The translations under genes and the position numbers were made by a program. A stretch of 64,000 nt of DNA from Mesostigma viride (Eukaryota > Streptophyta > Mesostigmatophyceae > Mesostigmatales > Mesostigmataceae): assembly GCA_009746045.1 (NCBI GenBank), contig RPFO01000578.1:1-64000 (forward strand), in the 5' to 3' direction. This document shows, piece by piece, positions 11,200-51,060 of the stretch (position 1 is its first letter; each line of letters starts with the position of its first letter). The notes beneath the pieces were generated by a model. The model made no database searches. It was not told the origin of the DNA and saw only the letters and a program-made list of their open reading frames with translations.

Positions 11200-11209
11200 T
11201 CATCATGCC

Positions 11210-14136: not shown

Positions 14137-14144
14137 ATATATAT

Positions 14145-17322: not shown

Positions 17323-17971
17323 AAAAAGCTAGGGTCAATAAGCGGCTCTATAATTAATCCGCGGCTCCCCAACGGGACTGCGTGACTACTGGGGGCAGAA
17401 ATCTTGAAGGATAGGGGTTAAAGGTTCCTTTATTGGTACCCACGTGACACAATTGCACGCTTTTACATCAATGACACAACCAGCGCAGGCCAGAAACCTG
17501 GAGAATTCTGACCATGGTAGCACACATGTTGAACTATTCCTCATCCGAAAGCCCCGAACGGGGCATTTATCAATTTGAAGGATAAAAGTTTTAGGCACAA
17601 CTTATGGCTTGCCTTAAGTTATGTGACGAGCACCGACGTGCACTGAGATGCGACAAGGAGCTACCTCGTGTATGGTGACTTGCCACATGGTTCAATTTGG
17701 CTCTCACCTACATGAGAAGAGACGCCCATAATGTGAAGCACAAGATCAGCCAGCATTCTAGCCATAGCGACTCATGATATTTCAAAGAAGGCCGCCAGGG
17801 ATGACCTATAGCCGCCACAGCAAGCAACCCCCACTAGCCTGCAGAGGGTTTTCCACGCACAGCACCTTCAGTATAATTAAAAAAAAGGGCATGCCCAAGA
17901 AACCTTCGGCAGCCATTTGACAAATGAATGGACTGTCGAGGAAACCGCCACCCATGCATATCCAGCGGCCC
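17323..17971 (-). other. Likely 3' UTR and downstream flank of threonine synthase
   Basis: No coding frame of substance. It contains a short LINE-like 3' end (ATAATTAAT and CTCCCCAACGGG near 17350-17380) and then unique sequence up to the threonine synthase stop codon. Confidence 0.5.
17463..17467 (-). terminator. Candidate TGTAA polyadenylation signal of threonine synthase
   Basis: TGTAA on the minus strand about 505 bases after the stop codon. TGTAA is the usual poly(A) signal in volvocalean algae. Position only; not confirmed. Confidence 0.35.
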
Positions 17972-27391
<9,420 letters not shown>

Positions 27392-29838: not shown

Positions 29839-32074
29839 ATGGGGCCATCCATCCGAAGGTCGGTTGCCTCGACGGTTTTTCAATGGACGACAAGCTTGCC
29901 GTCGACGTTAAGTTACTGCTATGAAGGCCTGACAACACCATATGTTGTCATCTCCTGGCTTTCCCCAGCTCGGTCGTTGTCTTTTGCTGGCCATGAGACG
30001 AACAAGGAGGAGAAGCATGGCAACTTCTTTGCGTCGGCAAACCGACAATTGGGCCCCGTCTCTCGAGATCGCTGGTGCCCTTCAAAGCTCCGCGGGCTTT
30101 TCGGCATGCAAAGCTGGCACGCCAGCTCCGGTTGCCGTCTTGGGCATACCCGCAGCTTTTATTGTGGGGCGGTGTTGCGTGCCAGCGCCAAAGAGCCTGG
30201 AAGCAGCCATGCACCTGTTTCCTCCTCCGGGAACTCGCATGCTCTTGAAAGTGACGCTGACCGGCTTGTAAAATTCCAGCAAGCCGAGAAGCTAGTCCGG
30301 GTAAGAAAATATTGTAAATATTGTGTATCTTGGTAAGCTTCAACGCATATGCACTTTTTTGTGCTTCAGAATGACGACTCAAGTTGCCCCAGGGTGCTAG
30401 GCACGCTCTGGGTGATAGATGACAAGCAGTCTGGCACCATGTTGCCATTTCAAAAGCACGGCGCGAATCCGCCTGTGTTTTTCGAAGGGATCCATTTTCA
30501 CATGTACGACTGAACGTGGAGATTTTTTTTGGGGGGGGGGAGGGGAGGGAGGGGGAGCGAACTGGGCCTGCTCGAGCATCAAGAAAAGGTTTAAACTCGA
30601 TTTCAAGCCGGTTGTGTGTCACGGCTGGTGGTTAGAAGGCACAGACAAATGACCACCCGCGTACCCTGACGGTTTTGGCTGCTAAACTTGTACGGACAAT
30701 GCTGTGGGAGCACATAGGGGGGTCGGACCATAGGTGCGCTCCCAGCATGGATCTTGTGATCCCTGGGACACCTGGCCAGGTGGGCACCTGGGTCCCCTTT
30801 GGTTCTGGGTACTGTGCAGCACTCCATGGCAGTCACAATGTAGCCTGTAGGAGTGCTCTGTGAGGTTGCGTGGCATGGCGTGGCGTGGCGTGGCGTGGCG
30901 TGGCGTGGCGTGGCGTGGCGTGGCGTGGCGTGGCGTGGCGTGGCGTGGCGTGGCGTGGCGTGGCGTGGCGTGGCGTGGCGTGGCGTGGCGTGGCGTGGCG
31001 TGGCGTGGCGTGGCGTGGCGTGATGTGCGTTGTCCCTTGTCTGGCTTGACCCCCGGCTTTTGTTACTATTGTCTGGTGCTGCTTGTTGCGTGACGTGAAT
31101 GACATGTGGCGGCAGCACGCGCATGTGTCAGAGCTGCGGCGACAGCTGGCTGAGGACCCCAGGGAGCTCCTGACGTACGGCCAGCTGCTCGACCTGTGCA
31201 TCAGCAGGTGCGGCGCCGCACGTGGGCAATGTGAGGGGGGTCTCACCCTCTGCTCTCCATGTGCATGCGGGAGTGAAGGCACGTGTGTCAAGTGTGTTGT
31301 GTCCCATGCAGGACTGTATAGTGTCCCATGCAGGAGTCTGTAGTGTCCCATGCAGGAGTCTGTAGTGTCCCATGCAGGAGTCTATAGTGTCCCATGCAGG
31401 AGTCTATAGTGTCCCATGCAGGAGTTTGACAATGTCCCATCCTACCAGTTTGTCAATTTCCCATTTGGCCAGTTTGACGATGTCCCATTCGACCAGTTTG
31501 ACAATGTCCCATTCTACCAGTGTGAAAATGTTCCATCTGACCAGTTTGACAATGCCCCATCCGACCAGTTGGACAATGTCCCATTTGACCAGTTTGACAA
31601 TGCCCCATCCGCGACCAGTTGGACATGTCCCATTCGACCAGTTTGACAATGTCCCGTTCGACCAGTTTGACAATGTCCCATTCGACCAGTTTGACAATGC
31701 CCCATTTGACCAGTTTGACAATGCCCCGTTCGACCAGTTTGACAATGTCCCACCCAAAACGTGCATCCTTGCACTTCTCGACTCTGCAAGAGCAGCCACG
31801 CGTGGCTTCTCAAGACAGAGGGGGTCGGCTTGCAAAGCCGTAGGGAGTGTATTTGCAGAATTGACACAAGGCAACATTCTTAGGTGCAAGCCCTCAGGGG
31901 CTGCCTCGCAGAGCCGACCGAGGGCGTTTGCTCGACATAACTCGCGGTGGCATCCCTCTGCCGGGGTGGGGACAACAGCACACCCCTGTGGGGACAACAG
32001 ACCCCTTCTGCGCACCGTGGGGGACGGTGACCGCCCAACCCCACACCCCGTCCATGCCTGTGTTAGCGCCGCCA

Positions 32075-32127
<53 letters not shown>

Positions 32128-35100
32128 TCTTCCATTGTTGTCGTCGCCATTGGCACCCATGCATTCACGGCTCCTTGCTGGCCTACTGTGGACCCACACC
32201 ACCTCAACAACGACGCACACATGCAACCGGGGTCGCCGTCGGCACGCTTGCTTGCATGGCTTCTTGCTTGCTCATGTTTGCATCCATCGTTCCTTGCTTG
32301 CGCGCTTTGGACCCATGCCTCCTCAACAACCATGACCCTATGCACCTTCCTCAACCACGTCCCCACGCACCGCCCTCAACATCATCCCCACGCACCGCCC
32401 TCAACATCATCCCCACGCACCGCCCTCAACCACCTGCCTGCATCTCCCCTGCCGGCTGCCCCATCCTCCCCACCCCATGGCGACCCCGAACGCGCCTGCA
32501 GTGGCGCCGCCCCCACGCCAGCGCAGGCGGGCGAGCTAGCCCAGGCACTGCACGCGTCCGCTACGGTCCTCATCCTGGGCGACAACGTCTATTTGCGGCC
32601 CACGCAGGTGAGAGGTTGTTTGTGCTTGCGGCGCAAACAGCTGAGGGGTTGTTTGTGCTTGCGGCCCAAGCAGGTGAGGGGTTCTTTGTGTTGCGCACAA
32701 GCAGGTGAGGGGTTGTTTGTGCTTGCAACCCAAGCAGGGGAGGGGTTGTTTGTGCTTGCGGCCCAAGCAGGTGAGGGGTTGTGTGTGCTTGCGGCCCAAG
32801 CAGGTGAGGGGTTGTTTGTGCTGGTGGGCCGAAGCAGGTGAGGGGTTGTTTGTGTTTGTGGCCCGAGCAGGTGAGGGGTTGTTTGTGCTTGCGGCCCAAG
32901 CAGGTGAGGGGTTGTTTGTGTTTGTGGCCCAAGCAGGTGAGGGGTTGTTTGTGCTTGCGGCCCAAGCAGGTGAGGGGTTGTTTGTGCTTGGGGCCCAAGC
33001 AGGTGAGGGGTTGTTTGTGCTGGTGGGCCGAAGCAGGTGAGGGGTTGTTTGTGTTTGTGGCCCAAGCAGGTGAGGGGTTGTTTGTGCTTGCGGCCCAAGC
33101 AGGTGAGGGGTTGTTTGTGCTTGCGGCCCAAGCAGGTGAGGGGTTGTTTGTGCTTGCGGCCCAAGCAGGTGAGGGGTTGTTTGTGCTTGCGGCCCAAGCA
33201 GGTGAGGGGTTGTTTGTGCTGGTGGGCCAAGCAGGTGAGGGGTTGTTTGTGCTTGTGGCCCAAGCAAGTAAGGGGTTGTTTGTGGTTGCAACCCAAGCAG
33301 GTGAGGGGTTGTTTGTGTGGCGCACAAGCAGGCGAGGGGTTGTTTGTGCTTGCGGCCCAAGCAGGTGAGGGGTTGTTTGTGCTTGCGTCCGAAGCAGCTG
33401 AGGGACTAATGGTGCTTGCGGCCCAAGCAAGTGAGGGGTTGTTTGTGCTTGCGGCCCAAGCAGGTGAGGGGTTGTTTGTGCTTGCAGCCCAAGCAGGTGA
33501 GGGGTTGTTTGTGCTGGTGGGCCGAAGCAGCTGAGGGGCTAATCGTGCTTGCGGCCCAAACAGGTGAGGGGTTGTTTGTGCTTGCGGCCCAAGCAGGTGA
33601 GGGGTTGTTTGTGCTTGCGGCCCAAGCAGGTGAGGGGTTGTTTGTGCTTGCGGCCCAAGCAGGTGAGGGGGTGTTTGTGCTTGCGGCCCAAGCAGGTGAG
33701 GGGTTGTTTGTGCTTGCGGCCCAAGCAGGTGAGGGGTTGTTTGTGGTTGCAACCCAAGCAGGTGAGGGGTTGTTTGTGCTTGCGGCCCAAGCAAGTGAGG
33801 GGTTGTTTGTGCTTGCGGCCCAAGCAGGTGAGGGGTTGTTTGTGCTTGCGGCCCAAGCAGGTGAGGGGTTGTGTGTGTTTGTGGCCCAAGCAGGTGAGGG
33901 GTTGTTTGTGCTTGCGGCCCAAGCAGGTGAGGGGTTGTTTGTGGTTGCAACCCAAGCAGGTGAGGGGTTGTTTGTGCTTGCGGCCCAAGCAAGTGAGGGG
34001 TTGTTTGTGCCTGGGTCCCAAGTAGGTGAGGGGTTAATTGTGCTTGCGGCTCCAGCAGGTGAGGGGTTGTTTGTGCTTGCGGCTCCAGCAGGTGAGGGGT
34101 TGTTAGTGCTGGTGGGCCGAAGCAGGTGAGGGGTTGTTTGAGGTTGCAACCCAAGCAGGTGAGGGGTTGTTTGTTTGGCGCACAAGCAGGTGAGGGGTTG
34201 TTTGTGTTTGTGGCTTAACCAGGTGAGGGGTTGTTTGTGCTTGCGGCCCAAGCAGGTGAGGGGTTGTGTGTGTTTGTGGCCCAAGCAAGTGAGGGGTTGT
34301 TTGTGTTTGTGGCCCAAGCAGGTGAGGGGTTGTTTGTCCTTGCGGGCCAAGCAGGTGAGGGGTTGTTTGTGTGGCGCACAAGCAGGTGAGGGGTTGTTTG
34401 TGTTTGTGGCTTAAGCAGGTGAGGGGTTGTTTGTGCTTTTGGGCCCAAACAGGTGAGGGGTTGTTTGTGCTTGCGGCTTAAGCGGGTGAGAGGTTGTTTG
34501 TGCTTGCAACCCAAGCAAGTGAGGGGTTGTTTGTGCTTTTGGGCCCAAACAGGTGAGGGGTTGTTTGTGCTTGCGGCCCAAGCGGGTGAGAGGTTGTTTG
34601 TGCTTGCAACCCAAGCAGGTGAGGGGTTGTTTGTGTTTGTGGCCCAAGCAGTTGAGGGGTTGTTTGTGTTTGTGGCCCAAGCAGGTGAGGGGTTGTTTGT
34701 GCTTGCGGCTGAAGCAGGTGAGGGGTTGTTTGTGTTTGTGGCCCAAGCAGGTGAGGGGTTGTTTGTGCTGGTGGGCCGAAGCAGGTGAGGGGTTGTTTGT
34801 GCTTGCGGCCCAAGCAGGTGGGGGGTTGTTTGTGCTGGTGGGCCGAAGCAGGTGAGGGGTTGTTTGTGCTTGCGGCCCAAGCAGGTGAGGGGTTGTTTGT
34901 GCTTGCGGCCCAAGCAGGTGGGGGGTTGTTTGTGCTGGTGGGCCGAAGCAGGTGAGGGGTTGTTTGTGCTTGCGGCCTAAGCAGGTGAGGGGTTGTTTGT
35001 GCTTGCGGCCGAAGCAGGTGAGGGGTTGTTTGTGCTTGCGGCCCAAGCAGGTGAGGGGTTGTTTGTGCTTACGGCCCAAGCAGGTGAGGGGTTGTTTGTG

Positions 35101-37539
35101 CTGGTGGGCCGAAGCAGGTGAGGGGTTGTTTGTGTTTGTGGCTTAAGCAGGTGAGGGGTTGTTTGTGGTTGCAACCCAAGCAGGTGAGGGGTTGTTTGTG
35201 CTTGCAGCCGAAGCAGGTGAGGGGTTGTTTGTGGTTGCAACCCAAGCAGGTGAGGGGTTGTTTGTGTTTGTGGCCCAAGCAGGTGAGTGGTTGTTTGTGC
35301 TTGCGGCCCAAGCAAGTGAGGGGTTGTTTGTGGTTGCAACCCAAGCAGGTGAGGGGTTGTTTGTGCTTGTGGCCCAAGCAGGTGAGGGGTTGTTTGTGCT
35401 TGCGGCCGAAGCAGGTGAGGGGTTGTTTGTGTTTGTGGCCCAAGCAGGTGAGGGGTTGTTTGTGCTTGCGGCCGAAGCAGGTGAGGGGTTGTTTGTGTTT
35501 GTGGCCCAAGCAGGTGAGGGTTGTTTGTGCTTGCGGCCCAAGCAGGTGAGGGGTTGTTTGTGCTTGTGGCCCAAGCAGGTGAGGGGTTGTTTGTGTGGCG
35601 CACAAGCAGGTGAGGGGTTTTTTGTTTGTGGCTTAAGCAGGTGAGGGGTTGTTTGTGCTTGCGGCCCAAACAGGTGAGGGGTTGTTTGTGCTTGCGGCCC
35701 AAGCGGGTGAGAGGTTGTTTGTGCTTGCAACCCAAGCAGGTGAGGGGTTGTTTGTGCTTTTGGGCCCAAACAGGTGAGGGGTTGTTTGTGCTTGCGGCCC
35801 AAGCGGGTGAGAGGTTGTTTGTGCTTGCAACCCAAGCAGGTGAGGGGTTGTTTGTGTTTGTGGCCCAAGCAGGTGAGGGGTTGTTTGTTTGGCGCACAAG
35901 CAGGTGAGGGGTTGTTTGTGCTTGCGGCCCAAGCAGGTGAGGGGTTGTTTGTGCTTGAGGCCCAAGCAGGTGAGGGGTTGTTTGTGCTTGCAGCCGAAGC
36001 AGGTGAGGGGTTGTTTGTGGTTGCAACCCAAGCAGGTGAGGGGTTGTTTGTGCTTGAGGCCCAAGCAGGTGAGGGGTTGTTTGTGCTTGCGGCCCAAGCA
36101 GGTGAGGGGTTGTTTGTGGTTGCAACCCAAGCAGGTGAGGGGTTGTTTGTGCTTGCAGCCGAAGCAGGTGAGGGGTTGTTTGTGGTTGCAACCCAAGCAG
36201 GTGAGGGGTTGTTTGTGCTTGCGGCCCAAGCAGGTGAGGGGTTGTTTGTGTTTGTGGCCAAAGCAGGTGAGGGGTTGTTTGTGCTGGTGGGCCGAAGCAG
36301 GTGAGGGGTTGTTTGTGCTTGCGGCCCAAGCGGGTGAGGGGTTGTTTGTGCTTGCGGCCCAAGCAGGTGAAGGGTTGTTTGTGTTTGTGGCCCAAGCAGG
36401 TGAGGGGTTGTTTGTTCTTGCGGCCCATGCAGGTGAGGGGTTGTTTGTGCTTGCGGCCCAAGCAGGTGAGGGGTTGTTTGTGCTGGTGGGCCGAAGCAGG
36501 TGAGGGGTTGTTTGTGTTGGTGGCTTAAGCAGGTGAGGGGTTGTTTGTGTGGCGCACAAGCAGGTGAGGGGTTGTTTGTGCTGGTGGGCGGAAGCAGCTG
36601 AGGGGTTGTTTGTGCTTGCGGTCCAAGCAGGTGAGGGGTTGTTTGTGCTTGCGGCCCATGCAGGTGAGGGGTTGTTTGTGCTTGCGGCTCAAGCAGGTGA
36701 GGGGTTGTTTGTGCTTGCAACCCAAGCAGGTGAGGGGTTGTTTGTGCTGGTGGGCCGAAGCAGGTGAGGGGTTGTTTGTGTTTGTGGCCCAAGCAGGTGA
36801 GGGGTTGTTTGTGCCTGCGGCCTAAGCAGGTGAGGTGTTGTTTGTGCTTGCGGCCCAAGCAGGTGAGGGGTTGTTTGTGCTTGCGGCCCAAGCAGGTGAG
36901 GGGTTGTTTGTGCTGGTGGGCAGAAGCAGCTGAGGGGCTAATCGTGCTTGCAGCCCAAGCAGGTGAGGGGTTCTTTGTGCTGGTGGGCCGAAGCAGGTGA
37001 GGGGTTGCTTGTGGTTGCGGCCGAAGCAGGTGAGGGGTTGTTTGTGCTTGCGGCCCAAGCAGGTGAGGGGTTGTGTGTGCTTGCGGCCCGAGCAGGTGAG
37101 GGGTTGTTTGTGTTTGTGGCCCAAGCAGGTGAGGGGTTGTTTGTGCTTGCGGCCCAAGCAGGTGAGGGGTTGTTTGTGCTTGCGGCCCAAGCAGGTGAGG
37201 GGTTGTTTGTGCTTGCGGCCGAAGCAGGTGAGGGGTTGTTTGTGCTTTTGGGCCCAAACAGGTGAGAGGTTGTTTGTGTTTGTGGCGCAAGCAGGTGAGG
37301 GGTTGTTTGTGCTTGGGGCCCAAGCAGGCGCGCACGCGTTGTCATGGAGCAATCATGTTCGCGCGGGTTGTTGTGGCCCACTTAGCCTTGCCCGTCCGCC
37401 TGTTCTCGCAACAATACCAACTGCACCTGCGGTGGCCACACGTACATTGGGGGCGTGGCCATATGGCATGGCATTACAAATGCCTATGCCATCAGTCATG
37501 GTGTTGCCTGTGGCAGGAGGCAGGGCAGGTGTATGCAAC

Positions 37540-37575
<36 letters not shown>

Positions 37576-40500
37576 GTGTGCGTGGTGGTGTGTGTGTGTG
37601 TGTGTGCGCGGTTGGTGGGGTGGGGTGGGGGAGGGGGGGCGGCGGGGGGGGGGGGGGGCAGGTGTGTGCAATGATGTGTATCCGTGTGTGCGTGTTAAGG
37701 GGCGCAGCCAGCGTTCAGCTGGTGGCCTTCACCACCCCGCAAGCCAGGCCCCTTACTTATAAGCCTGACCAGCTTAAATTAGGGGTTGCCTTGCGAAGCC
37801 GTAGGATTACCGCCTCGCAAGGCAGGCCCCTGTTGAGCTAGGCGGCGCGGCGCTGGTACCGTGCTTCTTGCCCTATCCTCCTTGCCCTTTACCAGTATAC
37901 CTTGAGTGACTGACCACCCGCCCACCTGCCCTGTGGTTTGGGACTGACCACCCGCCTGCCTGCCCTGTGGTTTGGGACTGACCGCATGCCCGCCTGATGG
38001 TCTCTGCCTGCCTTGTGATCGTGGCGTGCGTGTGCCTGCCTGCGTGCCAGATCGCGGACAAGGTGCTGGGCGTGCTGCCGGCGGTGTCGCACGACCAGCT
38101 GGCGCAGATGGAGAACACGGTGAGGCGCCGCCCGTGCACATTTCTAGCGGTGTTGCGCACATGTGCATTTGCAGCCATGGTCTTCCTGGAGTCACCTTTG
38201 CACTGCTTCCGCCGTTGCGGGACCCAGTGAGTAGTACTCCTACTCACATTTGCCCCCGTGGGGCTAGCCGTTAGATTCGATCCACTGGTTCATATTGGGG
38301 AATTTTGGATGCACTTTCGCCACTCTCTGGTAAAGAGCTTTTTCGCAGTTGGGCTATGGCTTGGGATGCCTTCAGATCAGGAGACCCCTAGAGTCGCGAA
38401 ATCATGCAAGAGGTCTTATGTTCGAATCCAGTGTCGTACCAAAAAATCGAATTGATAGCAGCACCGCTTTGCGTGGCCCCCCATCGTGCCTGTGTGTGGG
38501 ACTTGCGGAGCCTGCTGCATCAAAACGCTGAATGCAGTGTTTTTGCTAAGGGGTGGGGGGGGTTCCGGTAATTCCGGTAAGGTTCCCGGCCGAGGCCGGG
38601 GGGGGGGGTACGGGGGGGCTCCGCCCCCCCGGATGGTGGCGATTTTTTTTTTTTTAAAACAAAATCCCAATAGGATTTCTTATACAGTTATATAATTTAT
38701 CCTAAACTCTGAAGCCTTGCCATAGGCCCCTAGTGGGCTGCTTGTGCCCTGATTCTCATACCGGGGTATACGCAGCCGGCAGCCGGCAGCCGGCAGCCCT
38801 ACTGAGACACGCGACGATGATAACTTAGCATGCATACAAGCATGTGCACATGGTAACAATAGGAGGCTACAAAAAATAGTACGCATTGCTGGTAGGCAGT
38901 GTATAGCTCTCACATGGGCTCACCCATACATGGCGCGGCCTGACTAAGTAAGTTATTAAACATGATGCCGCCTGTTTGCATGCACCCTACACCCATAGGC
39001 CATTGGAAGTTGGAAAAGCTAGTATACCTAAGGAGACCCGGGTTCCTCTTTACAAACGAGGACCAGGTTCTTCGTCACCGCTAGCTAGTGCCATCTTGGC
39101 TTTCTTTGTATGTTGGTTCCCAGTTTTACCGCCGGGCCGGCGCAGCTTCCTGTCCGTCCATTTCACATGCGCTCGCTCGAACCCATTCATCTTCTCAAAG
39201 TGGTTGAACGAGAGCGGATCACCACCAGCATGGATTTCAGGCTGTGCGTGCGCTGAGCCACCTGCATCGCCCTCCTCTACGGCACCCTCATCCACATTCC
39301 TCGTATCAGTGTCGTCCCCTTCTAACTCGATGCCTGCCTGCGCCTGGTCTGTAACGACCGTGCCCAAAGCCCGCCGACCGCTTGCACTGCCGGCCAATGT
39401 TAAAATGCCACCGCCTCGTGAGAAATGGTCTTTGAAATTGTAGCCCAGGGGAATCGGGGGCTCTTTCTTCTTTGTCATGATTCGCTTCTCTAGCGCACTA
39501 TCGAATAATGCAGGATTAGAAAACACGCAAAACAAAAGTCAGCTGGCTCGACTGCCGTGAACTTCATCAACGTTTTGCGGCTCAGCACCTTCACATCGTG
39601 TTGCGTACCTACTGCAGGTCTGCAGTCTGCAGTGCAATTGTTACCCGCTCTACCAGTCTAGTCTACGCATTTGACAGACTGGACTTGCCGGCTGCCCAGT
39701 GCTGACCCATTCGTTGTAGGGTCAGAACTGCACCGCCCCACGCCTTTTGTTACTTGGGTACGGAACATCGATTTACTCACAAGTTGAAGTTGAAACTGTA
39801 GCCCCTCCTCAACAGTTACTGTTACTGTAGTACGTCCAACAACAGTCTACAAATCTCTGCTGCCCATTACGTGGCAACAACAACAGCAACAACATTTGTG
39901 CTGGTCAAGCTCACACTGGGATTTTAAGTGGGCAACATGAACGACAGCCAGGCGACAGCTGATAAAGTCGCGAGCAAGCAATGTTTGTGCAAAATCGCCT
40001 AGCCTTGACGAGCCGTTGCCCATGATTATTTTTTAAATACGGCATCTGAGGGTCACGCACTACTATTTTATGTTGATCAGTAAGGTATGTTGTAGCTGCG
40101 ATCGGACCATCGCGAGATTTCATTCCCTTGCACCCTGGTTTTTGTAGGGCATTCAGCAGGGCTCTGCTGTGTCGGCGTTTACATTTCGTGGAGGTGTTAG
40201 CATGGCAGCAATGTGCAAACTTTTTGTAAATGCCGGGAATGGTCAACCTTTACTAATAGAAATTGATATTGTGTTATAGTCAGTATATAAGTACCGGTTG
40301 TGTCTGACGGGGGAACCGGGGAACCCCGGCCGGCATTTAAAGCTTCCCGGTCGACCAGGGCAGCCCGGACAAGTCACAATGGCTTATACCGGTCGAACGG
40401 GGGGGGGTTCCTGCTCTGAACACAGCATACCGGTCGACCGGGGGGGGTTTCCTGCTTGGCATATAGCATACCGGTCGGCCGGGGGGGGCTTACCGGTCGG

Positions 40501-41704
40501 CCGGGGGGGCACCGGTAATTACCGGAAAATTACCGGAACCGGTCCGTTAGCAAAAACACTGGCTGAATGGGGCATGTCTTCATGCAGCTGCGTGCGTCTC
40601 CTGTACGCATCCTATACTTGGGGGTGCGCTCATGAGAACGTTGGTGCTGGGCTGGCTGGGTGGCTGTGCTGTGTATGTAGCAAGCGACAACAGCTGCGCT
40701 GGCTTTTGTGAGTGCATCAGCTGCGCTAGGCACGGCCCACAGTGGCGGCAGTGGTGGCTGCGCCTGGTGGTTGGCCTCCGGAGAGGCCATTCCTCACACC
40801 TCGCTGCTGGCATCCTGCACGCTTCAATGCCGGCATCCCTCTGGCTCTATGCTGCTGGCTTCCCTGGGGCCTCTTTGCTAGCATCTGCCACCGCGCTCTG
40901 GCCTTCATGCACCCCAGTGTGCCCATGCCCACCTGCACCTGCCCCCTCACAAATGCACCTCCACCACCAACAATGACAAAGACAACCCCCACATGTGCCA
41001 TACCTGCCCCCACAGCTGCGCCAGCTGGAGGACCGCCAGCGTGCGTTGGACGCGGCCGCGCGGCGCAAGGCGCTGCGCTGGATGACGGGCGGCCTGGCCG
41101 GCCTGGTGGCCCAGTTTGCGATCATGTTCCGCCTCACCTTCTACGACCTGTCGTGGGACGTGATGGAGCCCATCTCCTACTTCCTCGGCTCAGGTGCGGG
41201 GGAGGCATAGAACGAAACTGTTAGGGGACGCACAGCGTAGAATGGTCAGCAGGTTACGGCTTACATTGGTTGGCTGCTGGGGACAGGCACAGGGGAGGGG
41301 ACGCAGAGGGGGCCCACGGCTTGCTGTGTACGGAGGCGGTGGTCATGGCTAGAGATATCCATTCCTTCCTTCCTTCCTTCCTTCCTTCCTTCCTTCCTTC
41401 CTTCCTTCCTTCCTTCCTTCCTTCCTTCCTTCCTTCCTTCCTTCCTTCCTTCCTTCCTTCCTTCCTTCCTTCCTTCCTTCCTTCCTTCCTTCCTTCCTTC
41501 CTTCCTTCCTTCCTTCCTTCCTTCCTTCCTTCCTTCCTTCCTTCCTTCCTTCCTTCCTTCCTTCCTTCCTTCCTTCCTTCCTTCCTTCCTTCCTTCCTTC
41601 CTTCCTTCCTTCCTTCCTTCCTTCCTTCCTTCCTTCCTTCCTTCCTTCCTTCCTTCCTTCCTTCCTTCCTTCCTTCCTTCCTTCCTTCCTTCCTTCCTTC
41701 CTTC

Positions 41705-41783
<79 letters not shown>

Positions 41784-44425
41784 TCGTGTGCCTGCGTTGG
41801 GAGAGCCTCGGGGTACCGACCTTTTGAGTAGATACCTTCCCGCCTTGATTGGTGCACAGCGGAGAGATACCCGTGGACCATATCGTGGAGAATTGGGACG
41901 ACAGGCAGGGATATTTTTGGGTGTAGGGACTAGATGGCTGTTTGGACATGGCCCAGTCATCAGCTCGACACTACCCTGCTGGCCCACTACGCTAGGTGCG
42001 GGACGCCAGCTGCCACGACATCATGAGTGGACGTGGCCATCCCCACCAGCTGCACGTGGCTGCAGGACCCTGGACCTGCGTTGCAGCGCAGGAGGACAGG
42101 AGGCTTGTCCTACGTTGCAGCGCAGGAGGACAGGAGGCTTGTCCTACGTTGCATGGCATGAGGACAGGAGGCTTGTCTTACGTTGCATGGCATGAGGACA
42201 GGAGGCTTGTCTTACGTTGCAGCGCAGGAGGACAGGAGGCTTGTCTTACGTTGCAGGGCATGAGGACAGGAGGCTTGTCCTACGTTGCAGCGCAGGAGGA
42301 CAGGAGGCTTGTCTTACGTTGCAGCGCAGGAGGACAGGAGGCTTGTCTTACGTTGCAGGGCATGAGGACAGGAGGCTTGTCCTACGTTGCAGGGCAGGAG
42401 GACAGGAGGCTTGTCTTACGTTGCAGGGCATGAGGACAGGAGGCTTGTCTTACGTCGCAGCGCAGGAGGACAGGAGGTTTGTCTTACGTTGCAGCGCAGG
42501 AGGACAGGAGGCTTGTCTTACGTTGCAGCGCACGAGGACAGGAGGCTTGTCCTACTTTGCAGCGCATGAGGAAAGGAGGCTTGTCCTACGTTGCAGGGCA
42601 TGAGGACAGGAGGCTTGTCTTACGTTGCATGGCATGAGGACAGGAGGCTTGTCTTACGTTGCAGGGCATGAGGACAGGAGGCTTGTCTTACGTCGCAGCG
42701 CATGAGGACAGGAGGCTTGTCTTACGTTGCAGCGCATGAGGACAGGAGGCTTGTCCTACATTGCAGGGCATGAGGACAGAAGGCTTGTCCTACGTTGCAT
42801 GGCATGAGGACAGGAGGCTTGTCTTACGTTGCAGCGCAGAAGGACAGGAGGCTTGTCTTACGTTGCAGCGCGTGAGGACAGGAGGCTTGTCCTACGTTGC
42901 AGGGCATGAGGACAGGAGGCTTGTCTTACGTTGCAGCGCAGGAGGACAGGAGGCTTGTCCTACTTTGCAGCGCGTGAGGACAGGAGGCTTGTCTTACGTT
43001 GCAGCGGGTGAGGACAGGAGGCTTGTCTTACGTTGCAGCGGGTGAGGACAGGAGGCTTGTCTTACGTTGCAGGGCATGAGGACAGGAGGCTTGTCCTACT
43101 TTGCAGCGCGTGAGGACAGGAGGCTTGTCTTACGTTGCAGCGGGTGAGGACAGGAGGCTTGTCCTACGTTGCAGCGCAGGAGGACAGGAGGCTTGTCCTA
43201 CTTTGCAGCGCGTGAGGACAGGAGCCCTGTCGTATCCTGATGCCCTGCAACAGCTGTGTGAAAGAAGATCAAGGTGCTGCCCCTGTCCATCTACCCACAA
43301 CATTACTCAGGAAACACCAGGGTTGTGCTGGCAAGTTTTTCCTACTTCTTGCTACAGTGGAAGGGCTAGCAACGTGATCAGAAACCATCCCGTTGCGAAG
43401 CCGTCGAGGATCAGCCAGGGCCATGGACTCGCTGCTTGATACATGGCTTCTAATATCCCGACACCCATCTCTCACTTCTTCTTCCCCCACCTTGCCGTTT
43501 GTGTGTGCTTGGCGCCGCTCCCCTCCTTGCCCCTTCCCCCCCCCCCCCCCCCGCTGCCTCCTTGGCCCTTCTTCCCCCCCACTGCCTCTTTGCCCCCTCT
43601 CCCCCTCACTGCCTCCTTGCGCCCCCTTCCCCCGACTGCTGCCTTGCCCCCTCTTCCCCCCCAATTGCTTCCTTGCACCCTCTTCCCCCCCGCTGTTTCC
43701 TTGCACCCTCTTCCCTCCACCAGGTAGTGTGATCCTCGGCTACATCTACTACCTGTGGACGCTCCGCCCGCTAGAGTACGTCCCGGTCTTCTCGCACGCG
43801 TTCAGCAAACACCAGGTGAGTGTTGGGCAAGCTTGGCATTCGGTACTTGATGCCTTGTTGGTTCTTTTTACCTTGTCGGACGCACTTAACAGGGTTGGGC
43901 AAGTACTCGGTGTGGGTTGGGCAAGCAACAGGTGAGCGCTGGGCAAGCTTGACATTCGGTACTTGACGCCTTGTTGGTTCTTTTATACCTTGTCGGACGC
44001 ACTTAACAGGGTTGGTCAAGCACCCGGTGAGGGTTGGGCAAGCCCAGGTTGGGGGTTGGACATGTAACAAGTGGGGCGTTGTGCAAGCAATAGGGAGGCA
44101 GTCGGTGCTTGACACGTTTTTGGTACTTGACACTTCATTGAACGTACTCAACAGCATGCGTGCACACGGCCAGTTGACCGGCTAGCCATTCCCACCCAGA
44201 ACTTGATGACCCAGATCTAACGCCTTTCTGATTCTGTGGCATTTTCCTTGTCCGCTTAATCTGCCTGCCTGCATCCACTTGGCGGTCACTGCTCGGGTAT
44301 GGCAGGCGAAGGAGTACAGAAACGCGGGTCTCAATCCGGATGCTATTGCTGAGTTGAAGCGCTCCATTGCGGCGATGAAAAAGCTGCCTTTACGAAAACA
44401 GTTAGGTTCATCTGTGTCTGAATGA
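29839..44425 (+). CDS. MCU: Mitochondrial calcium uniporter pore subunit, 7 exons
   Basis: Exons: 29839-30300, 31116-31230, 32522-32607, 38051-38119, 41016-41193, 43724-43815, 44306-44425; GT-AG junctions, consistent phases (0,1,0,0,1,0), 1122 bp, 373 residues. Exon 1 is Arg/Ser-rich with few acids, fitting a mitochondrial presequence, and ends [10 protein letters not shown]. Exons 2-4 give the matrix N-terminal domain ([34 protein letters not shown]). Exon 5 has a coiled coil ([20 protein letters not shown]), TM1 and the pore signature WDVMEP at 41154-41171, with the Asp and Glu that form the calcium filter. Exon 6 has TM2 ([18 protein letters not shown]). Exon 7 has a second coiled coil and stop TGA 44423-44425. 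The family forms a tetrameric calcium channel of the inner mitochondrial membrane; DVME is the plant-type variant of DIME. Introns make up over 92% of the gene. The start codon is the least certain part. Confidence 0.93.
30876..31020. repeat. Pure (TGGCG)29 in MCU intron 1
   Basis: 145 bp with no interruption, ending 95 bp before exon 2. A G run lies earlier in the same intron (30525-30560). Confidence 0.95.
31304..31755. repeat. Two adjoining minisatellites in MCU intron 2 (22 bp and 24 bp)
   Basis: Five to six units of a 22-bp repeat with GTCCCATGCAGGAGTC (31304-31425), then about 14 units of a 24-bp repeat with CCAGTTTGACAATGTCCCAT (31424-31755). Both share TGTCCCAT, so the second may have grown from the first. 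Confidence 0.85.
32077..32128. repeat. (CT)n(GT)n compound microsatellite, MCU intron 2
   Basis: About 16 CT units followed by 9 GT units. Confidence 0.9.
32592..37340 (+). repeat. 33-bp minisatellite built from the exon 3 end and its 5' splice site, MCU intron 3
   Basis: About 140 head-to-tail units. Each starts GTGAGGGGTTGTTTGTGC and ends with a copy of the last 15 coding bases of exon 3 (TTGCGGCCCAAGCAG, against TTGCGGCCCACGCAG in the exon). The first unit begins at the genuine donor at 32608. Variants include a 34-bp unit ending GGTGGGCCGAAGCAG, units with TTGCAACCCAAGCAG, TTTGTGGCCCAAGCAG or CTTTTGGGCCCAAACAG, and units with GGCGCACAAGCAG. Almost all retain CAG|GTGAG. At 33 bp it is 11 codons and stop-free in most frames, hence long spurious frames on both strands. 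Confidence 0.95.
37544..37660. repeat. (GT)n and G-rich tract, MCU intron 3
   Basis: About 13 GT units, an interrupted second GT run, then a G-rich stretch with a run of 10 G near 37648-37658. Confidence 0.85.
38333..38455 (+). repeat. Possible tRNA-related SINE, copy 2, MCU intron 4
   Basis: ATGTTCGAATCCAG at 38419-38432 is close to a Pol III B box and is followed by TGTCGTACCAAAAAA. Related to 24522-24548. No clear A box. Confidence 0.35.
38535..40561. mobile_element. hAT-type DNA transposon, 2027 bp, in MCU intron 4
   Basis: Terminal inverted repeats CAGTGTTTTTGCTAA (38535) and its complement ending at 40561; 8-bp target duplication GCTGAATG at 38527-38534 and 40562-40569. CAGTG ends with an 8-bp duplication are diagnostic of hAT. 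Subterminal regions are packed with TTCCGGTAA and ACCGGTCGACCGG-type motifs next to G runs, likely transposase binding sites. No intact transposase is seen. Confidence 0.92.
39050..39535 (-). pseudogene. Open frame inside the hAT element, possible transposase N-terminus remnant
   Basis: 161 codons, acidic linker then [17 protein letters not shown] and QHTKKAKMA. The W/F-x-HF start and the spacing of the following basic and His residues recall a BED zinc finger, but the Cys pair is not complete. No catalytic hAT region was found downstream, so the element appears non-autonomous. Confidence 0.3.
41362..41785. repeat. (TTCC)86 followed by (TTTC)20 in MCU intron 5
   Basis: 344 bp of TTCC then 80 bp of TTTC, without visible breaks. 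A pure polypyrimidine tract on the transcribed-RNA sense strand, prone to triplex (H-DNA) formation. Confidence 0.95.
42080..43232. repeat. 34-bp minisatellite in MCU intron 5
   Basis: About 34 units, each with GTTGCAGCGCAGGAGGACAG followed by GAGGCTTGTCTTAC. Variation is concentrated in the 6-8 bases after TTGCAG (CGCAGGA, GGCATGA, CGGGTGA). Because 34 is not divisible by 3, each frame cycles through three peptides. Confidence 0.95.
43810..44052 (+). repeat. 116-bp tandem duplication containing the 5' splice site, MCU intron 6
   Basis: The genuine donor CCAG|GTGAGTGTTGGGCAAGC is at 43816; ACAG|GTGAGCGCTGGGCAAGC recurs at 43932 and is followed by the same sequence for about 100 bp. A weaker third start, CCGGTGAGGGTTGGGCAAGC, is at 44025. 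Confidence 0.9.
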
Positions 44426-45662: not shown

Positions 45663-46516
45663 ATTAATTAATTAATAATTAATAGACACGTGACTGCGTC
45701 ACGTGAGCATAAGTCCTCAGTGGGAGGGGAGCATGGGATGGAATGGATGGTATAAGCTATCTAGGTCCTAGTTACAGGGGTGTGGGCACCGCGGCCCGAA
45801 TCGCTATGAATGCCATACTTGGTCACACGCGGAGCCCCCACAGGCTTGGGGGTGGTCTCCTTCATCACTACTTGCCATCTATCCTTGCGCACCATCTGCC
45901 TCCATATTACAGACAAACCAGGAGGCTGCCTGGGGGTGAGCTCGTCACGTCTAGTGTAGCACATGTCCATGCCGAGTCTATCACGAAAAGTCCACGGGTG
46001 GCGGCCCTGCCGCGCGCGGCCGGGGGCACGCCAGGTGAGGACATATCGCCCAGGCTGGGCGGGCTTGGTGCCAGCTAGTCTATCTGATGTATCTACCTGA
46101 TCTGTGCGGGCCAGGTGCCCGGCTAGGCCCAGGCGCCTGTGCCTAATAATGTGGGAAACATAGGGCAAATCAGCGTACAAATCCTCATTACTAATGTGCA
46201 AACCAAAGGGGATGTTAAGGGCCTTGCGCAGCATCTTGGTGACGGCGCCGTCGAGTCGTTGCTCCAGCTCCTGCATCAGTGTCCACGTCTCGGCGCCGTA
46301 GGTCAGGATCGTCAGAATGACGACCTTGAGGAGGTCACGCTTGACGATCCGGGGTAGGGCGGGGTTGCTCCACCAGCGGCGGTGGTCATGGAGGTGCGCC
46401 CACGCCATGCCGATCCGTGTCGTCATGTCGTCCTCGCAGTCGGGAAGCCAACTGCCGAGCAGCTTGAAGCGGCCTGAAGGAGGGTAGTTGACCTCGGCAT
46501 CGTCTAAGAGGCGGAG
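45663..46516 (-). mobile_element. LINE-A copy, 5'-truncated, intact C-terminal frame
   Basis: The minus-strand frame 46516-45761 encodes the RT thumb and C-terminus without interruption: LLGSWLPDCEDDMTTRIGMA, TYGAETWTL, HRRLGLAGHLARTDQV and a C-terminus ending HTPVTRT. It shows that the same region at 9952-10690 is damaged by a stop and a frameshift. Truncated where the DIRS-like element starts. Confidence 0.9.
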
Positions 46517-46676
46517 AGCCAAGGCCGCATGACACGCAAAAAAGGACAAAAACAAACCCACCTAGCTAAGGTCGGCCTCTTTTCTTTTCACGAGGGCGGC
46601 GACAGCAAGCCAGGGGTAACGAACCTCTGGTTTGACGAACCTGTACTGTCGGAGCCATTTTTGGCCCTGAGCAGCA

Positions 46677-47720
46677 ATGCCGAAGGGGCGCAAAGCTACA
46701 GGAGGGCAGGCAGCGCGCGGGGAGGACGGGACGCCCACACCGCGGGCTGCTGCCGCCAGTCACGCGCCAGTCGCCTTCAGCGCCAAAAAGAAGCAGCTCG
46801 CCATTCTGCTCGCCAAGTGCATCAGCCCCGCAGAGGCGGTGGGGGCAGTCGAGCAGGTCTTCGGTGCCGAGGACTGGGTGACGGACGCCAGCTCGTGGAG
46901 CTCGAGCCAACTGACGTCTGTCGTGCAGTTGCTGGCCGATCACGTTGATGTTGGCGACGTGTTGGACGCACGTGACCCAAACGGAACGTTGGTGGCAAAA
47001 CTGCTGGCCGTGGCAGATCTCGCGGCGGACGAGGAGGATCAGGCGCTGCCACCAACGACACCTGCGCAGCGAAAAATGGCCAAGCCGAAAGGCGCGGCCA
47101 AGGTTTCGGCAGGTGGGGGGGCTGTCGGAAAGGAAATGAGGGCGAGGTTGGCGACATTCGTTGGGGCACCTCCGGAAACCGAAAATCAGGACGACGAGGA
47201 GGACGAGGAGGGGGAGGTCGCAGCCGAGAAATTCATGCAAGGTTTGAAGGCAGCGCTGGGAGGAATGGAGGGGGCGGGAAGCCACTTCAAGGCCTCGAAA
47301 GGGGTGGCGCTGCCAAGCCGAGCCAAGAGCGTGAAATATCGGGTTTCGGAGCGGGTGCTGCCGGGGGTGTTGGAGGACGCCAGCGACAATGGGATGGGAA
47401 TCCGGTCGTGGGTCATGACGGTAAAGCCTGGAAATTGGCGGAACATGGAGAACAGGAAAATTGTCATGAACATTGCATTGGCCATGGACACCCTTCTCAA
47501 GGAGCTGGGCTCAGCAGCCGGGGAGCTTGTGGGCATGGAGTACCTAATGAGGGTGGTGGCGGCCTTGCTGCAGGTGGAGGGGCAAGGAGGGGGGGGTGGA
47601 AGGTGGCCAGCCACCTCCTGCCATTGGGGGAGGAGGCTGCACTGTCAGCCACCCCGGCTGTCAAGGCAGCTCTCCAAACTGCCATCCTCTTGGACAAGCT
47701 CAGCAAGGCTCAACAAGTAG
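46677..47720 (+). CDS. DIRS-like element ORF1 (Gag-like)
   Basis: 347 codons from ATG 46677 (MPKGRKATGGQAARG). Basic N-terminus, alanine-rich middle, acidic stretch ENQDDEEDEEGEV near 47178-47215. The C-terminal third becomes low in complexity after about 47580 and may be out of the natural frame there. It overlaps the next ORF. No CCHC motif. Confidence 0.65.
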   Translation: MPKGRKATGGQAARGEDGTPTPRAAAASHAPVAFSAKKKQLAILLAKCISPAEAVGAVEQVFGAEDWVTDASSWSSSQLTSVVQLLADHVDVGDVLDARDPNGTLVAKLLAVADLAADEEDQALPPTTPAQRKMAKPKGAAKVSAGGGAVGKEMRARLATFVGAPPETENQDDEEDEEGEVAAEKFMQGLKAALGGMEGAGSHFKASKGVALPSRAKSVKYRVSERVLPGVLEDASDNGMGIRSWVMTVKPGNWRNMENRKIVMNIALAMDTLLKELGSAAGELVGMEYLMRVVAALLQVEGQGGGGGRWPATSCHWGRRLHCQPPRLSRQLSKLPSSWTSSARLNK

Positions 47721-47799
47721 GGAAATAGAATCCCAGCGGGACCGCTCCCTTTTCCCGCTGCCATACCCACTTAGGCCAGCGTACACCGCGTGGGGCAGG

Positions 47800-49920
47800 G
47801 TGAGATCGGCACGCCGGCGACAGCGTGCCACGCGCCGCCACCGCGAGTACACACTGCAATGCAAGGTAGTGCGTTGGCTTAATTGGCTGTGGGGAGGGGG
47901 GCAAGACCCTCCTCCTAACCCTAGAGGGGCGTGCTCTAAGGGGAGGGAGGAGGCCCTTGCGAGGGTCAAGAGGCACTGCACCTGGCACAGTCGCCGCGTA
48001 GGGGGCGTTGCGACAGGCCAGGAGCAAGAAGGTGCTGATGCAATATATGGGAAGCAGAATAAGTATGAACAACTGCGCGCGGACGCGGTGAGTCTACCAA
48101 AGGCGGAGGTGGCGGGGAAGGCACGGCTGCTCGACCTGTTGGCTATGCGGCCGAGCTGGCGGGAGATATATGCCAGCGAAGAGAACTGCATCAAGCCAGC
48201 GGTCGTGGCGAGCGCAAAGTATTGGAATGTGCCCAAGCCCAGCCGGGGATGCTCCATGGCTGAATGGGGCAAGCTCATGAGCCGGGCAGCGGGCGTGGGC
48301 ATGGTGGCGTTCCGGGAGAGGCGGCCCAAGTGGGTGGATGGCTGCTTTGGAGTGGCCAAGGGGGTGGGTGAGCTTCGGTTCATCGTCAACAGGAAGCTGG
48401 GCAACCTGCTGTGGGTGGACCCCCCCAAGATCCTGCTACCCCACCTGGGCATCCTCGTGGAGGTCTACATCAAGGGCTGGTGCTACTGCGCCAAGAGCGA
48501 CCTCGTGTCATACTACTATTCCATCGAGGTGCCCGAGTGGTGGTGGGACTACCAAGGGCTTCCTAGTGTGTGGTCGACTAGCGTAGGTCTGGCAGGGCCC
48601 AGGCGGAAGGTGTGGCCCGTGCTCAAGGTGCTGGCCATGGGACATTCCCATGCGGTGGCGCTGGGGGAGGCCATCCATGAGATGGTGCTCTACATGACCG
48701 GTGCCCTGGATCCGAGGCGCCAGGTCAACTACCTCTCAAGCGCAGGTGAGCTCACCTTGGTGCGCGACGAGTGTGGCCAGCCACTGCGCTTGGCCATCGA
48801 GTACAAGGAGGAGCGCGCCGGGGAGCTTCAGATTGACCTGGAAAACCCCCCTGCCCCCATGCTGTCCATCACCATTGATGACTTGGTGGCCAGCAACGGG
48901 CGGACCTGCGAGGCGGTGAACCAGCTCATCACGCGCGCTATTGAGGAAGGCTACCTCCCTAACAACCTTGTGCCGTCTAAGGAGAAGACTAAGATGGCGA
49001 GCCTGGAAGGGGACGAGCTAGAAGCCCTAGGGGTGGTGCACCGACGGAACGGCGTGCTGGAACCAACGGTCAAGCAGCTCAACCTTGTGATCGCCCACAC
49101 GCAGGCTATACTCACTCGAGGCCGAGCTACGGCCGAGGGGCTGGCTGCCGTCTTGGGGCGGTGGTTGTGGCTGCAGATGTTAAGCCGCAGCTGCTTGTCC
49201 ATTTGGCAGCAATGTTTCAAATTCATCAGCCTGCAAGGGTGGGGGCAGCGATCCTGGGTGCTGTGGGCCGGGGTGCGGGAGGAGTTAGAGTGTGCCCTGG
49301 CCTTGGCTCCCATGCTAAGGGTTGACCGAAGCGCACCTTTGGCCCGTGAGGTGGTTGCATCTGACGCGTCCACCTACGGGCAAGGTGTCGTGTACGCAAC
49401 CATGGAGCCGGGCGATGTGACGGAGCTGGCGAGGGCACGAGAGGTGCGGGGGTACCCGACTTTGCTCATACCAAGTGAGGTGGCCTACGCTGGCCCTAGG
49501 CCACTGAGCGCGCGGGCGCAACAAGCAATCACTAGCCAGCAATGGCGGGTTGGGGTCCGGAGTCGTTGGCGGGATCCGGGGATGCACATCAACGAGAAGG
49601 AGGTGCGGGCTGCAGTGAAGGGCGTGGAGAGGAGTGCGCGCAGCTTGGCAAACCGAGGCAAGCGGGTGGTGAGGTTGGTGGACTCCACCGCGGCGTTGGG
49701 CTGCTTGGCTAAGGGGCGGTCCTCATCCCACAAGCTCAACAAGCAGTGCCGCCGCTTGTGCGCGCTGACCCTCGCCACTGGGAGTCGTTCCCAGTGGGTG
49801 TGGACGCCGAGTGCACTTCAACCAGCCGATGGCGTTTCTCGCGGCCAATCCATGGCGACTTTCTTGGCAGGCTGGGTGCGCGACCTGACCGCGGAAGGCA
49901 TCCATCCTAACCCGGGGCCC
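47800..49920 (+). CDS. DIRS-like reverse transcriptase and RNase H
   Basis: Open frame 47596-50253; recognisable protein from about 48050. RT: GVGELRFIVNRKLGNLLWVD, CAKSDLVSYYYSIEVPEWWW (first Asp), APMLSITIDDLVASNG (second catalytic pair, IDD). RNase H: REVVASDASTYGQGVVYA (first Asp), HINEKEVRAAVKGVE (Glu), VVRLVDSTAALGCLAKG (Asp), WVWTPSALQPADGVSRG. The frame continues without a stop into the recombinase N-terminal domain. Confidence 0.9.
49897..49920 (+). other. 2A-like motif at the RNase H / recombinase boundary
   Basis: Encodes GIHPNPGP, preceded by RDLTAE. It matches the NPGP core of 2A ribosome-skipping peptides, with His in place of the usual Glu. Skipping here would release RT-RNase H from the recombinase. 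Confidence 0.55.
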
Positions 49921-50853
49921 CCTGCACCTGTTAGCTACCTTCCATTGCTAGAGGGGAAAGTAAAGCCGGCTACTTTGCTGGCCTACCGTCGTGGTCTTGA
50001 TTCCCTCTTGACTTGGTGGGAGGCTGGTGGGCGGGCGGACGGGTCATCGTCACGAGCTGACACCCTTGAGGAGACATTTTGTGCGTATGTCGCCTGGGCT
50101 CATTTTCGGGGGTACAGCCGCCAAGACGTGTGTCAATGCCTTGATGGGGTTGCAACTTTATTATCCTGGTATGGTGAAGCGGTGGGACTTGGCCCGTGGC
50201 GTCCTCGCTGGGTGGAAAACACTTGTGCCCCCCCGTGCCCCTCCTCCCATTAATTCCATGGGAGGCGGCGTTTGCACTTGCCAGCACGATGGTCATGCAA
50301 GGTCAGCGCCTTGCGGGCCTGCTGGTGGTCATCGTGTTCCGCCATTACCTGCGAATCTCGGAGGCGCTGAACCTCCGTGTTGGCCATGTGCGCCTCCAGC
50401 CTGACGTTTGGGCCGGCTCAACGGGGCGCCCTACTGTTGAGGTCTACCAAGACCTCTAAGGGCAAGACTCAGTCATGCAGTGGTGGTAGAAGATGTGATG
50501 TCTGAAACCATCCTCCGTCACTGCATCACCGGTAAGCACGCTTGGGAGGCCGTGTTCCCTTTCACCTACCCGCAATTCAGGCGCATTTGGCAGGATGCGA
50601 GTCAGGCCTTGGGGGTCGCCCAGATTTTCACCATTCACGGGCTGCGGCATGGGGTGCCACTCATGATTTCCTCGCGGGTCGCAGCATGGGGGACATCCAG
50701 GGCCGGGGGCGCTGGCTTAGCAGCTCCACGGTTGCCCATTATGTGGGCTTGCACCGCAGTTTGGAGGTGGAGTTTCCTGATGTTCTTCTTCGGGCCATGG
50801 CCGCCTGCCCCCCTCGGGCCTGGCGGGCTATTTTGAAATTGCCCTCCACCTAG
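49921..50853 (+). pseudogene. Tyrosine recombinase of the DIRS-like element (frameshifted)
   Basis: The core-binding domain TLLAYRRGLDSLLTWWEAGG begins near 49972. After a frameshift near 50235 the catalytic domain appears: FRHYLRISEALNLRVGH (box I Arg, near 50337-50387), then TIHGLRHG (His-x-x-Arg, near 50628-50652), GRGRWLSSSTVAHYV (third basic position and the nucleophilic Tyr, near 50701-50745). The last block is in yet another frame, stop at 50851-50853. At least three frame changes, so this copy should not make an active recombinase unless the indels are assembly errors. Confidence 0.8.
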
Positions 50854-51060
50854 TTTGGTTGTTCATTTCTATGTCATTATGCTAGGTTCTTTGCCCCTGG
50901 CATGGATCGCCAGGGAGGGATATAAGGGTAAGGCTAGCCTTTGCCAAGCAATAAGTGTTCCCATGAGCATCGGCGGCCGGGATGTGGCCTGCCTTTTGTA
51001 TGTGCTCCACTCATTGTTTTAATAAAGAGTCTGGTTACCCTGGAGTTCCACAGTTAATAG

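What the first reader, a model, noticed from the sequence alone, without database searches (positions are those of the whole stretch)
32592..37340. A 4.7-kb array of about 140 copies of one 5' splice site inside MCU intron 3
The 33-bp unit is the exon 3 end (TTGCGGCCCA[C/A]GCAG) plus its donor GTGAGGGG and 10 bp of spacer. It begins at the genuine donor, so the array grew out of the splice junction. Each unit is a strong candidate donor (CAG|GTGAGG), and because 33 bp is 11 codons, use of a later donor would often add whole 11-residue repeats without a frame change until a 34-bp variant intervenes. Either the spliceosome ignores about 140 decoys by choosing the first, or the repeat gives a ladder of isoforms. 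I know of no described locus like this; tandem duplication across AGGT is known as a proposed route to new introns.
Basis: partly seen in the sequence, partly recalled or inferred. Interest (0 to 1): 0.92.

Follow-up and report, generated by a model that had tools for sequence, protein, structure and literature searches.

The report
Splice site repeated 143 times downstream
In what is most likely the green alga Mesostigma viride, the end of one exon and its splice signal stand in 143 tandem copies at the start of the next intron, smaller copies of the same kind follow other exons nearby, and the splicing machinery would have to choose the first of about 135 similar signals for the gene to make its protein.

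Summary
A 33-bp minisatellite (32593-37328, 143 full units) starts inside exon 3 of an MCU gene and runs 4.7 kb into intron 3. 135 of 143 units keep GT; 119 read CAG|GTGAG. The gene (7 exons, GT-AG introns, 373 codons with stop) is MCU by Pfam; its closest hit is the Mesostigma viride model Mv03616, which joins exon 3 to exon 4 at the first donor.

Unit 2's donor is dead, unit 3 is 31 bp, and only one of 134 further GT donors (32674, +22 residues) keeps the frame without a stop. The GT positions are kept no better than the spacer core.

The locus is not alone. Threonine synthase in the same window has a 37-bp x5 array starting at an exon end, MCU intron 6 a 116-bp one. Five of 12 donors have a downstream copy (intron-matched P = 3.5e-5), acceptors 1 of 12. 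Genome-wide, donor-word arrays are several-fold commoner than two of three one-base controls.

'No described locus' is wrong: human IFI6 has a donor minisatellite. New are size and recurrence. Best model: tandem duplication across the junction, tolerated because exon definition likely picks the exon-proximal donor. RNA evidence is missing.

The parts
32593..37328 (+). 33-bp minisatellite: 15-nt exon stub plus 143 full units, each exon 3 end + donor + spacer
32502..32607 (+). MCU exon 3 (106 nt); its last 15 nt are the first part of the array
32608..32613 (+). genuine exon 3 donor GTGAGA, the first of 135 GT donors
32674..32679 (+). only further donor that keeps the exon 4 frame without a stop (+22 residues)
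38051..38119 (+). MCU exon 4; acceptor CAG at 38048-38050 lies outside the array
29839..44425 (+). MCU gene: exons 29839-30300, 31116-31207, 32502-32607, 38051-38119, 41016-41193, 43724-43815, 44306-44425
   Evidence: the Mesvir1 model differs at exons 6/7
43805..44049 (+). second donor-spanning repeat: 116-bp unit x2.1 (with 22-bp repeats inside) from the last 11 nt of MCU exon 6 into intron 6
22108..22287 (-). third donor-spanning repeat: 37-bp unit x4.8 (five donor-like sites) from a threonine synthase exon (..QQFNWQ|GTGAG)
23160..23325 (-). threonine synthase exon end (donor 23298) and its copy 116 bp downstream in the intron; the copy has lost the donor
20012..20127 (-). threonine synthase intron start (donor 20127) copied 89 bp downstream, intron side only
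17971..25169 (-). threonine synthase gene, seven exons read (5' part not traced)
   Evidence: 1e5x, E=8.1e-191

Best explanation
The array is a minisatellite that most likely grew by repeated tandem duplication of the exon 3/intron 3 junction of MCU, so that intron 3 now carries 134 further GT copies of its own 5' splice site, and the spliceosome likely uses the first, exon-proximal copy. Shown: the array starts in the exon, the unit holds the exon end and donor, most copies are predicted as strong as the original, and use of almost any other copy would shift the frame or run into a stop. Also shown: smaller junction copies lie downstream of other donors in the same window; of 12 acceptors one has an upstream copy, a C-rich 28-bp repeat next to it. 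Inferred: growth by slippage or unequal exchange, perhaps helped by the G-rich skew. Inferred: tolerance comes from exon definition. Exon 3 (106 nt) lies between introns of 1,294 and 5,443 nt, a setting in which the donor nearest to the exon's own acceptor is favoured (PMC9225289), so copies added downstream stay silent, whereas copies added upstream of an acceptor would tend to be used.
For: Array and units. Gene and junction. Donor strength (median -11.6 against -9.55 kcal/mol for the 12 real donors of the two genes) and frame. The further donors found in threonine synthase intron 3 (four) and MCU intron 6 (two) are all out of frame. Junction copies: 5 of 12 donors; acceptors to upstream 1 of 12, donors to upstream 0 of 12, acceptors to downstream 0 of 12; intron-matched P = 3.5e-5; with three more donors of a WD40-like gene, 5 of 15, against pooled controls 1 of 36 p = 0.006. 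The Mesvir1 model joins exons 3 and 4 at the first donor. GT positions kept no better than the spacer core. Genome-wide excess of donor-word arrays. Exon-definition rule: passages.
Against: No RNA was examined; the Mesvir1 model may be ab initio. The classical proximity rule (Reed and Maniatis, as told in PMC9225289) would favour the last copy. Donors against acceptors alone is 5/12 against 1/12 (Fisher p = 0.08). The three WD40-like donors showed no copy. 20 sampled loci, 19 of them on contigs under 50 kb, and the 50 kb of C380 next to the window gave no array with a donor word in its consensus; one array in L022 holds four scattered AGGTRAG words. The Mesvir1 model uses another exon 6 donor (43776), which would take intron 6 out of the count. 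Some genome-wide controls do not favour the donor words.
Confidence: 0.72

Rival explanations
1. The repeat gives a ladder of MCU isoforms: several donors in the array are used, as in human IFI6.
For: 135 GT donors, 119 of 143 units as strong as the first; IFI6 uses two downstream units (PMC4526556); donor 32674 would add 22 residues in frame.
Against: Only one further donor of 134 keeps the frame without a stop. The Mesvir1 model uses the first donor.
Confidence: 0.1
2. The array is a regulatory decoy: use of later donors makes nonproductive MCU RNA that is destroyed, or the copies hold U1 snRNP and protect the long intron, and the array is kept for that.
For: 133 of 134 further donors would be nonproductive; predicted U1 pairing is strong. 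The donor window (2.9% non-consensus) is better kept than the exon-derived part (12%) and, if its variable last base is counted, the spacer (4.3%).
Against: The GT positions deviate in 4.2% and 1.4% of units against 2.4% on average for the other donor and spacer-core positions; the spacer without its last base deviates in about 2.0% (from the table): no clear sign of selection on the donors.
Confidence: 0.12
3. Ordinary intronic minisatellite: this genome is rich in minisatellites and the overlap with donors is chance.
For: Other arrays in MCU introns 2 and 5 do not start at donors; control words also form arrays, e.g. CACGTGAG 12 arrays among the first 100 places.
Against: Array starts fall on 5 of 12 donors against 2.9% of 21,785 positions; four of the five copies have an exon part.
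Confidence: 0.12
4. The array length is an assembly artefact.
For: No reads were seen; long arrays are error-prone.
Against: 68 distinct units among 143 do not look like a looped assembly; the published M. viride assembly used PacBio reads with N50 11.2 kb, long enough to span 4.7 kb; both genes also show shorter versions.
Confidence: 0.05

Closest known systems
Human IFI6 (6-16) donor minisatellite (Turri, Cuin and Porter 1995, PMC306954; paper not held, seen as citation and in a passage of PMC4526556)
   Same: A minisatellite supplies multiple splice donor sites, and two downstream units act as donors
   Different: 143 units here (for IFI6 about 26 units of 12 bp at exon 2/intron 2, recalled); downstream units here are almost all nonproductive by frame; similar repeats recur in the same window
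Rogers model: intron gain by tandem duplication of an AGGT segment (ATP2A1; fission yeast 24-bp repeats; potato RdRp; PMC4974935, passages)
   Same: Tandem duplication of a segment with AG|GT; in fission yeast an intron spans several 24-bp duplicates
   Different: Here the duplicated piece is the junction of an intron whose acceptor lies outside the array; no new intron is shown
Minisatellites in introns in general (e.g. hTERT VNTR, PMC2915984, passages)
   Same: Tandem repeats within introns
   Different: The unit includes the exon end and the live 5' splice site

Membership tests
Minisatellite | tandem units of about 10-100 bp, many copies, variant units | tested here: met
   33 bp x 143, 68 distinct units
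Minisatellite | length variation between individuals | not testable with these tools
   one assembly only
Splice-donor minisatellite (IFI6 type) | array overlaps the exon-intron junction and units hold a donor | tested here: met
   junction by gene model and annotation, not by RNA
Splice-donor minisatellite (IFI6 type) | more than one unit used as donor in RNA | not testable with these tools
   no RNA; by frame only 32674 would be productive
Intron gain by tandem duplication (Rogers) | both splice sites of the new intron come from the duplicate | tested here: not met
   acceptor at 38050 is 722 bp beyond the array and not a unit
MCU (PF04678) | Pfam match over the curated cut-off | tested here: met
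   115.6 bits against 30.8

The most novel reading that the evidence does not exclude
In Mesostigma exon-intron junctions are a standing source of minisatellites: donor-spanning tandem duplication recurs across the genome and lengthens introns, and it survives at donors but not at acceptors because the spliceosome obeys a strict first-donor rule. The arrays would then be a genomic record of how 5' splice sites are chosen, with MCU intron 3 as a natural test on 135 near-equal sites.
Probability: 0.4. Interest if true: 0.82.

Novelty: new variant of a known kind. Interest (0 to 1): 0.62.

Why it matters
How a spliceosome chooses among near-identical competing donors has mostly been studied with a few engineered sites (from general knowledge). 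Here about 135 near-equal donors compete in one natural intron, and the two proximity rules make opposite forecasts: exon definition the first donor, intron definition the last. One long-read cDNA library could decide. If junction duplication proves common in this early-branching streptophyte alga, it is also a simple route by which introns lengthen, and a donor/acceptor asymmetry that can be counted in any genome.

Tried and rejected
Isoform ladder: rejected on frame. Selection on the donor copies: no clear excess of conservation. Random sampling of the genome: 20 loci (177,942 bases, 19 from contigs under 50 kb) gave no array with a donor word in its consensus; one array in L022 holds four scattered AGGTRAG words. 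They seem gene-poor: two hold a satellite (L016, L019), some have long intronless ORFs. L031 was not scanned for donor arrays. The model-free motif scan had only 37 donor clusters, 9 from the MCU array, and was too small (four control motifs 0 copies each; acceptor-like motif 10 downstream and 12 upstream copies among 451 clusters); it seems to have merged the threonine synthase array into an upstream motif. Match counts of the genome-wide patterns mislead, because large arrays give many matches: CAGGTGAG 922 against 49 backward, but CAGGTAAG 115 against 219 backward, CAGGTCAG 626 against 712 backward, CACGTGAG 121 against 391 backward. I therefore counted arrays. The listed CAGGTCAG places are mostly 5-bp microsatellites. 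CAGGAGAG did not complete. A fourth WD40-like donor was mis-located by my script (it returned another site) and is not counted.

Papers: PMC4974935, PMC9225289, PMC6947507, PMC2915984, PMC2572611, PMC3618361, PMC4526556 and PMC8724738 were seen as passages; the rest as search listings; Turri 1995 and Parker and Porter 2004 were not held. The paper searches were made; in their listings, which show only the top papers, I saw no title on donor arrays in Mesostigma, and the main text of PMC6947507 holds no 'tandem repeat' and no 'splic'.
Full report
WHAT IS THERE. The window holds a tandem array at 32593-37328 with a 33-bp unit. Aligned unit by unit, it consists of a 15-nt stub (TTGCGGCCCACGCAG, 32593-32607) and 143 full units from 32608: 116 of 33 bp, 18 of 34, 8 of 31 and 1 of 32. 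There are 68 distinct unit sequences; the commonest occurs 28 times. The 21-nt word that spans exon end and donor occurs 34 times in the 440-Mb assembly, all here.

THE GENE. A seven-exon model with GT-AG introns only gives a 373-codon frame including the stop. It matches Pfam MCU at 115.6 bits and solved MCU channels. The closest protein is the Mesostigma viride model Mv03616 (eukprot, jgi/Mesvir1), identical to my model except around exons 6 and 7. There the Mesvir1 model fits a donor at 43776 and an acceptor at 44215 (my reading of its protein; places checked); my model keeps a segment that aligns with MCU structures. Both models splice exon 3 at 32607|32608 to exon 4 at 38051. The assembly (439.9 Mb, 2,243 contigs) resembles the published M. 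viride NIES-296 assembly (441.8 Mb, 2,363 scaffolds, PacBio read N50 11.2 kb, mean intron 1,142 bp; PMC6947507, passages); that they are the same is inferred.

THE JUNCTION IS THE SEED. The first 15 nt of the array encode LRPTQ within the Pfam MCU match (residues 193-345). Grass MCU relatives have VYLHPEK or AYLHPEK at that place by eye (P0002, P0003; not formally aligned). So the coding sequence came first and the repeat derives from it; this is inference from homology.

THE COPIES AS DONORS. 135 of 143 units keep GT, 119 read CAG|GTGAG, and 119, the first included, are predicted to pair with the U1 5' end at least as well as the genuine donor; the median is -11.6 kcal/mol against -9.55 for the 12 real donors of MCU and threonine synthase (duplex energy, register not forced; the U1 sequence is recalled). 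The two GT positions deviate from the consensus in 4.2% and 1.4% of units, the other donor and spacer-core positions in 2.4% on average. By regions, donor -4..+6 deviates in 2.9%, spacer +7..+18 in 4.3%, the exon-derived part in 12%; most of the spacer figure comes from its last base (28.7%), without which it is about 2.0% (from the table). So there is no clear sign that the copies are selected as donors.

NO LADDER. Joining each GT donor to exon 4 keeps the frame without a stop only for 32608 and 32674. Unit 2 has CT instead of GT, unit 3 is 31 bp, and 41 of 135 donors are in frame 0 but all except two lie beyond a stop. Other choices would be nonproductive. In the two other junction arrays the further donors found are also out of frame (threonine synthase 22223, 22186, 22148, 22111; MCU 43932, 44027).

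NOT ALONE. On the minus strand the window holds threonine synthase (PDB 1e5x, E=8.1e-191). The exon ending QQFNWQ is the first unit of a 37-bp array with 4.8 copies (22108-22287). I scored each of the 12 donors of the two genes for a copy of the junction within the next 400 bp. Five score 19 or more: MCU intron 3 (36.2), MCU intron 6 (30.6, 116 bp away), threonine synthase intron 2 (24.8, 116 bp away, mostly exon sequence, with a lost donor), intron 3 (44.0, 37 bp away) and intron 5 (19.2, intron side only); four of the five have an exon part. Controls: acceptors to upstream 1 of 12 (MCU exon 6, where a C-rich 28-bp repeat at 43528-43715 lies next to the acceptor), donors to upstream 0 of 12, acceptors to downstream 0 of 12. 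Donor 5/12 against pooled controls 1/36 gives p = 0.002; against acceptors alone p = 0.08. Over all 21,785 positions of the two gene spans 2.9% look like an array start; drawing one position per intron gives 5 or more in 3.5e-5 of draws. Three donors of a WD40-like gene on the same contig (a reading by eye) show no copy (11.0, 9.0, 9.2), so 5 of 15 in all, p = 0.006 against the pooled controls.

GENOME-WIDE. Three CAGGTGAG words with gaps of 8-38 bases match 922 times, the backward control 49 times. Matches overcount large arrays, so I counted arrays. Only about the first 100 places are listed, in order of contig number, so that the list looks complete for contigs C1-C379: CAGGTGAG 10 arrays (one of them, C191, may be coding), the one-base change CAGCTGAG 1 (4 in the whole genome), CACGTGAG 3, CAGGTAAG 2 (20 arrays in its first 100 places). 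In 297 kb in hand these words occur 17, 13, 14 and 3 times, so arrays per word are about 0.6 for the two donor words and 0.08 to 0.2 for the two controls. The third control, CAGGTCAG, is listed only to C136: on C1-C135 one ordinary array and three 5-bp microsatellites, against five CAGGTGAG arrays. CAGGTGAGT gives 30 matches in 7 arrays, backward 1. Against this: the backward controls of CAGGTAAG (219 against 115) and CAGGTCAG (712 against 626) match more often than the words themselves, and I do not know in how many arrays. That they sit at exon ends is not shown.

MECHANISM. Growth: tandem duplication by slippage or unequal exchange (inferred); the array is G-rich on the coding strand (GC skew +0.467), as many minisatellites are (recalled). 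Tolerance: exon 3 is 106 nt long between introns of 1,294 and 5,443 nt. PMC9225289 (passages) reports that in long introns the donor closest across the exon to its own acceptor is favoured, while across short introns the donor nearest to the next acceptor wins, and that of close acceptors the upstream AG is almost exclusively used. Applied here, copies added after a donor stay silent and copies added before an acceptor do not; this would explain the asymmetry. It is inference, from work that is not on algae.

KNOWN RELATIVES. [quoted passage not shown] title seen, paper not held), and two downstream units are used (PMC4526556, passage). Intron gain by tandem duplication of AGGT segments is described for ATP2A1 and fission yeasts, and by duplication across an intron-exon boundary for potato RdRp (PMC4974935, passages). 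The MCU array works like the IFI6 one in anatomy; whether more than one unit is used is untested. It does not meet the intron-gain model, because its acceptor is not part of the array.

VERDICT. What is new is the number of copies and the recurrence of junction copies in the same genome.

Noticed in passing
window 31299-31752, 41362-41783, 42079-43231: MCU introns 2 and 5 hold further minisatellites (22, 24, 34 bp) and a 105-copy TTCC repeat that do not start at donors.
   Followed up: partly
window 43776 and 44215: The Mesvir1 model of MCU fits another exon 6 donor and exon 7 acceptor than my model and drops a segment that aligns with MCU structures.
   Followed up: partly
window 32674: The third unit's donor would give a 22-residue in-frame insertion, the only productive alternative by frame.
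   Followed up: yes
window 43528-43715: A C-rich 28-bp repeat runs up to the acceptor of MCU exon 6, the one acceptor with an upstream copy.
   Followed up: no
window 35143-37341, minus strand: A 732-residue open frame on the opposite strand of the array, likely a by-product of the 33-bp period.
   Followed up: no
window about 9780-16380 and 46200-51580: Repeated reverse-transcriptase-like open frames, by eye non-LTR retroelements.
   Followed up: no
L016, L019: A 40-bp satellite fills L019 and most of L016, on two small contigs.
   Followed up: no
L024, L028: Long intronless open frames unlike host genes, by eye possibly of giant-virus type; only looked at.
   Followed up: no
L017: A stretch of 21.6% GC on a small contig, perhaps organellar.
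   Followed up: no
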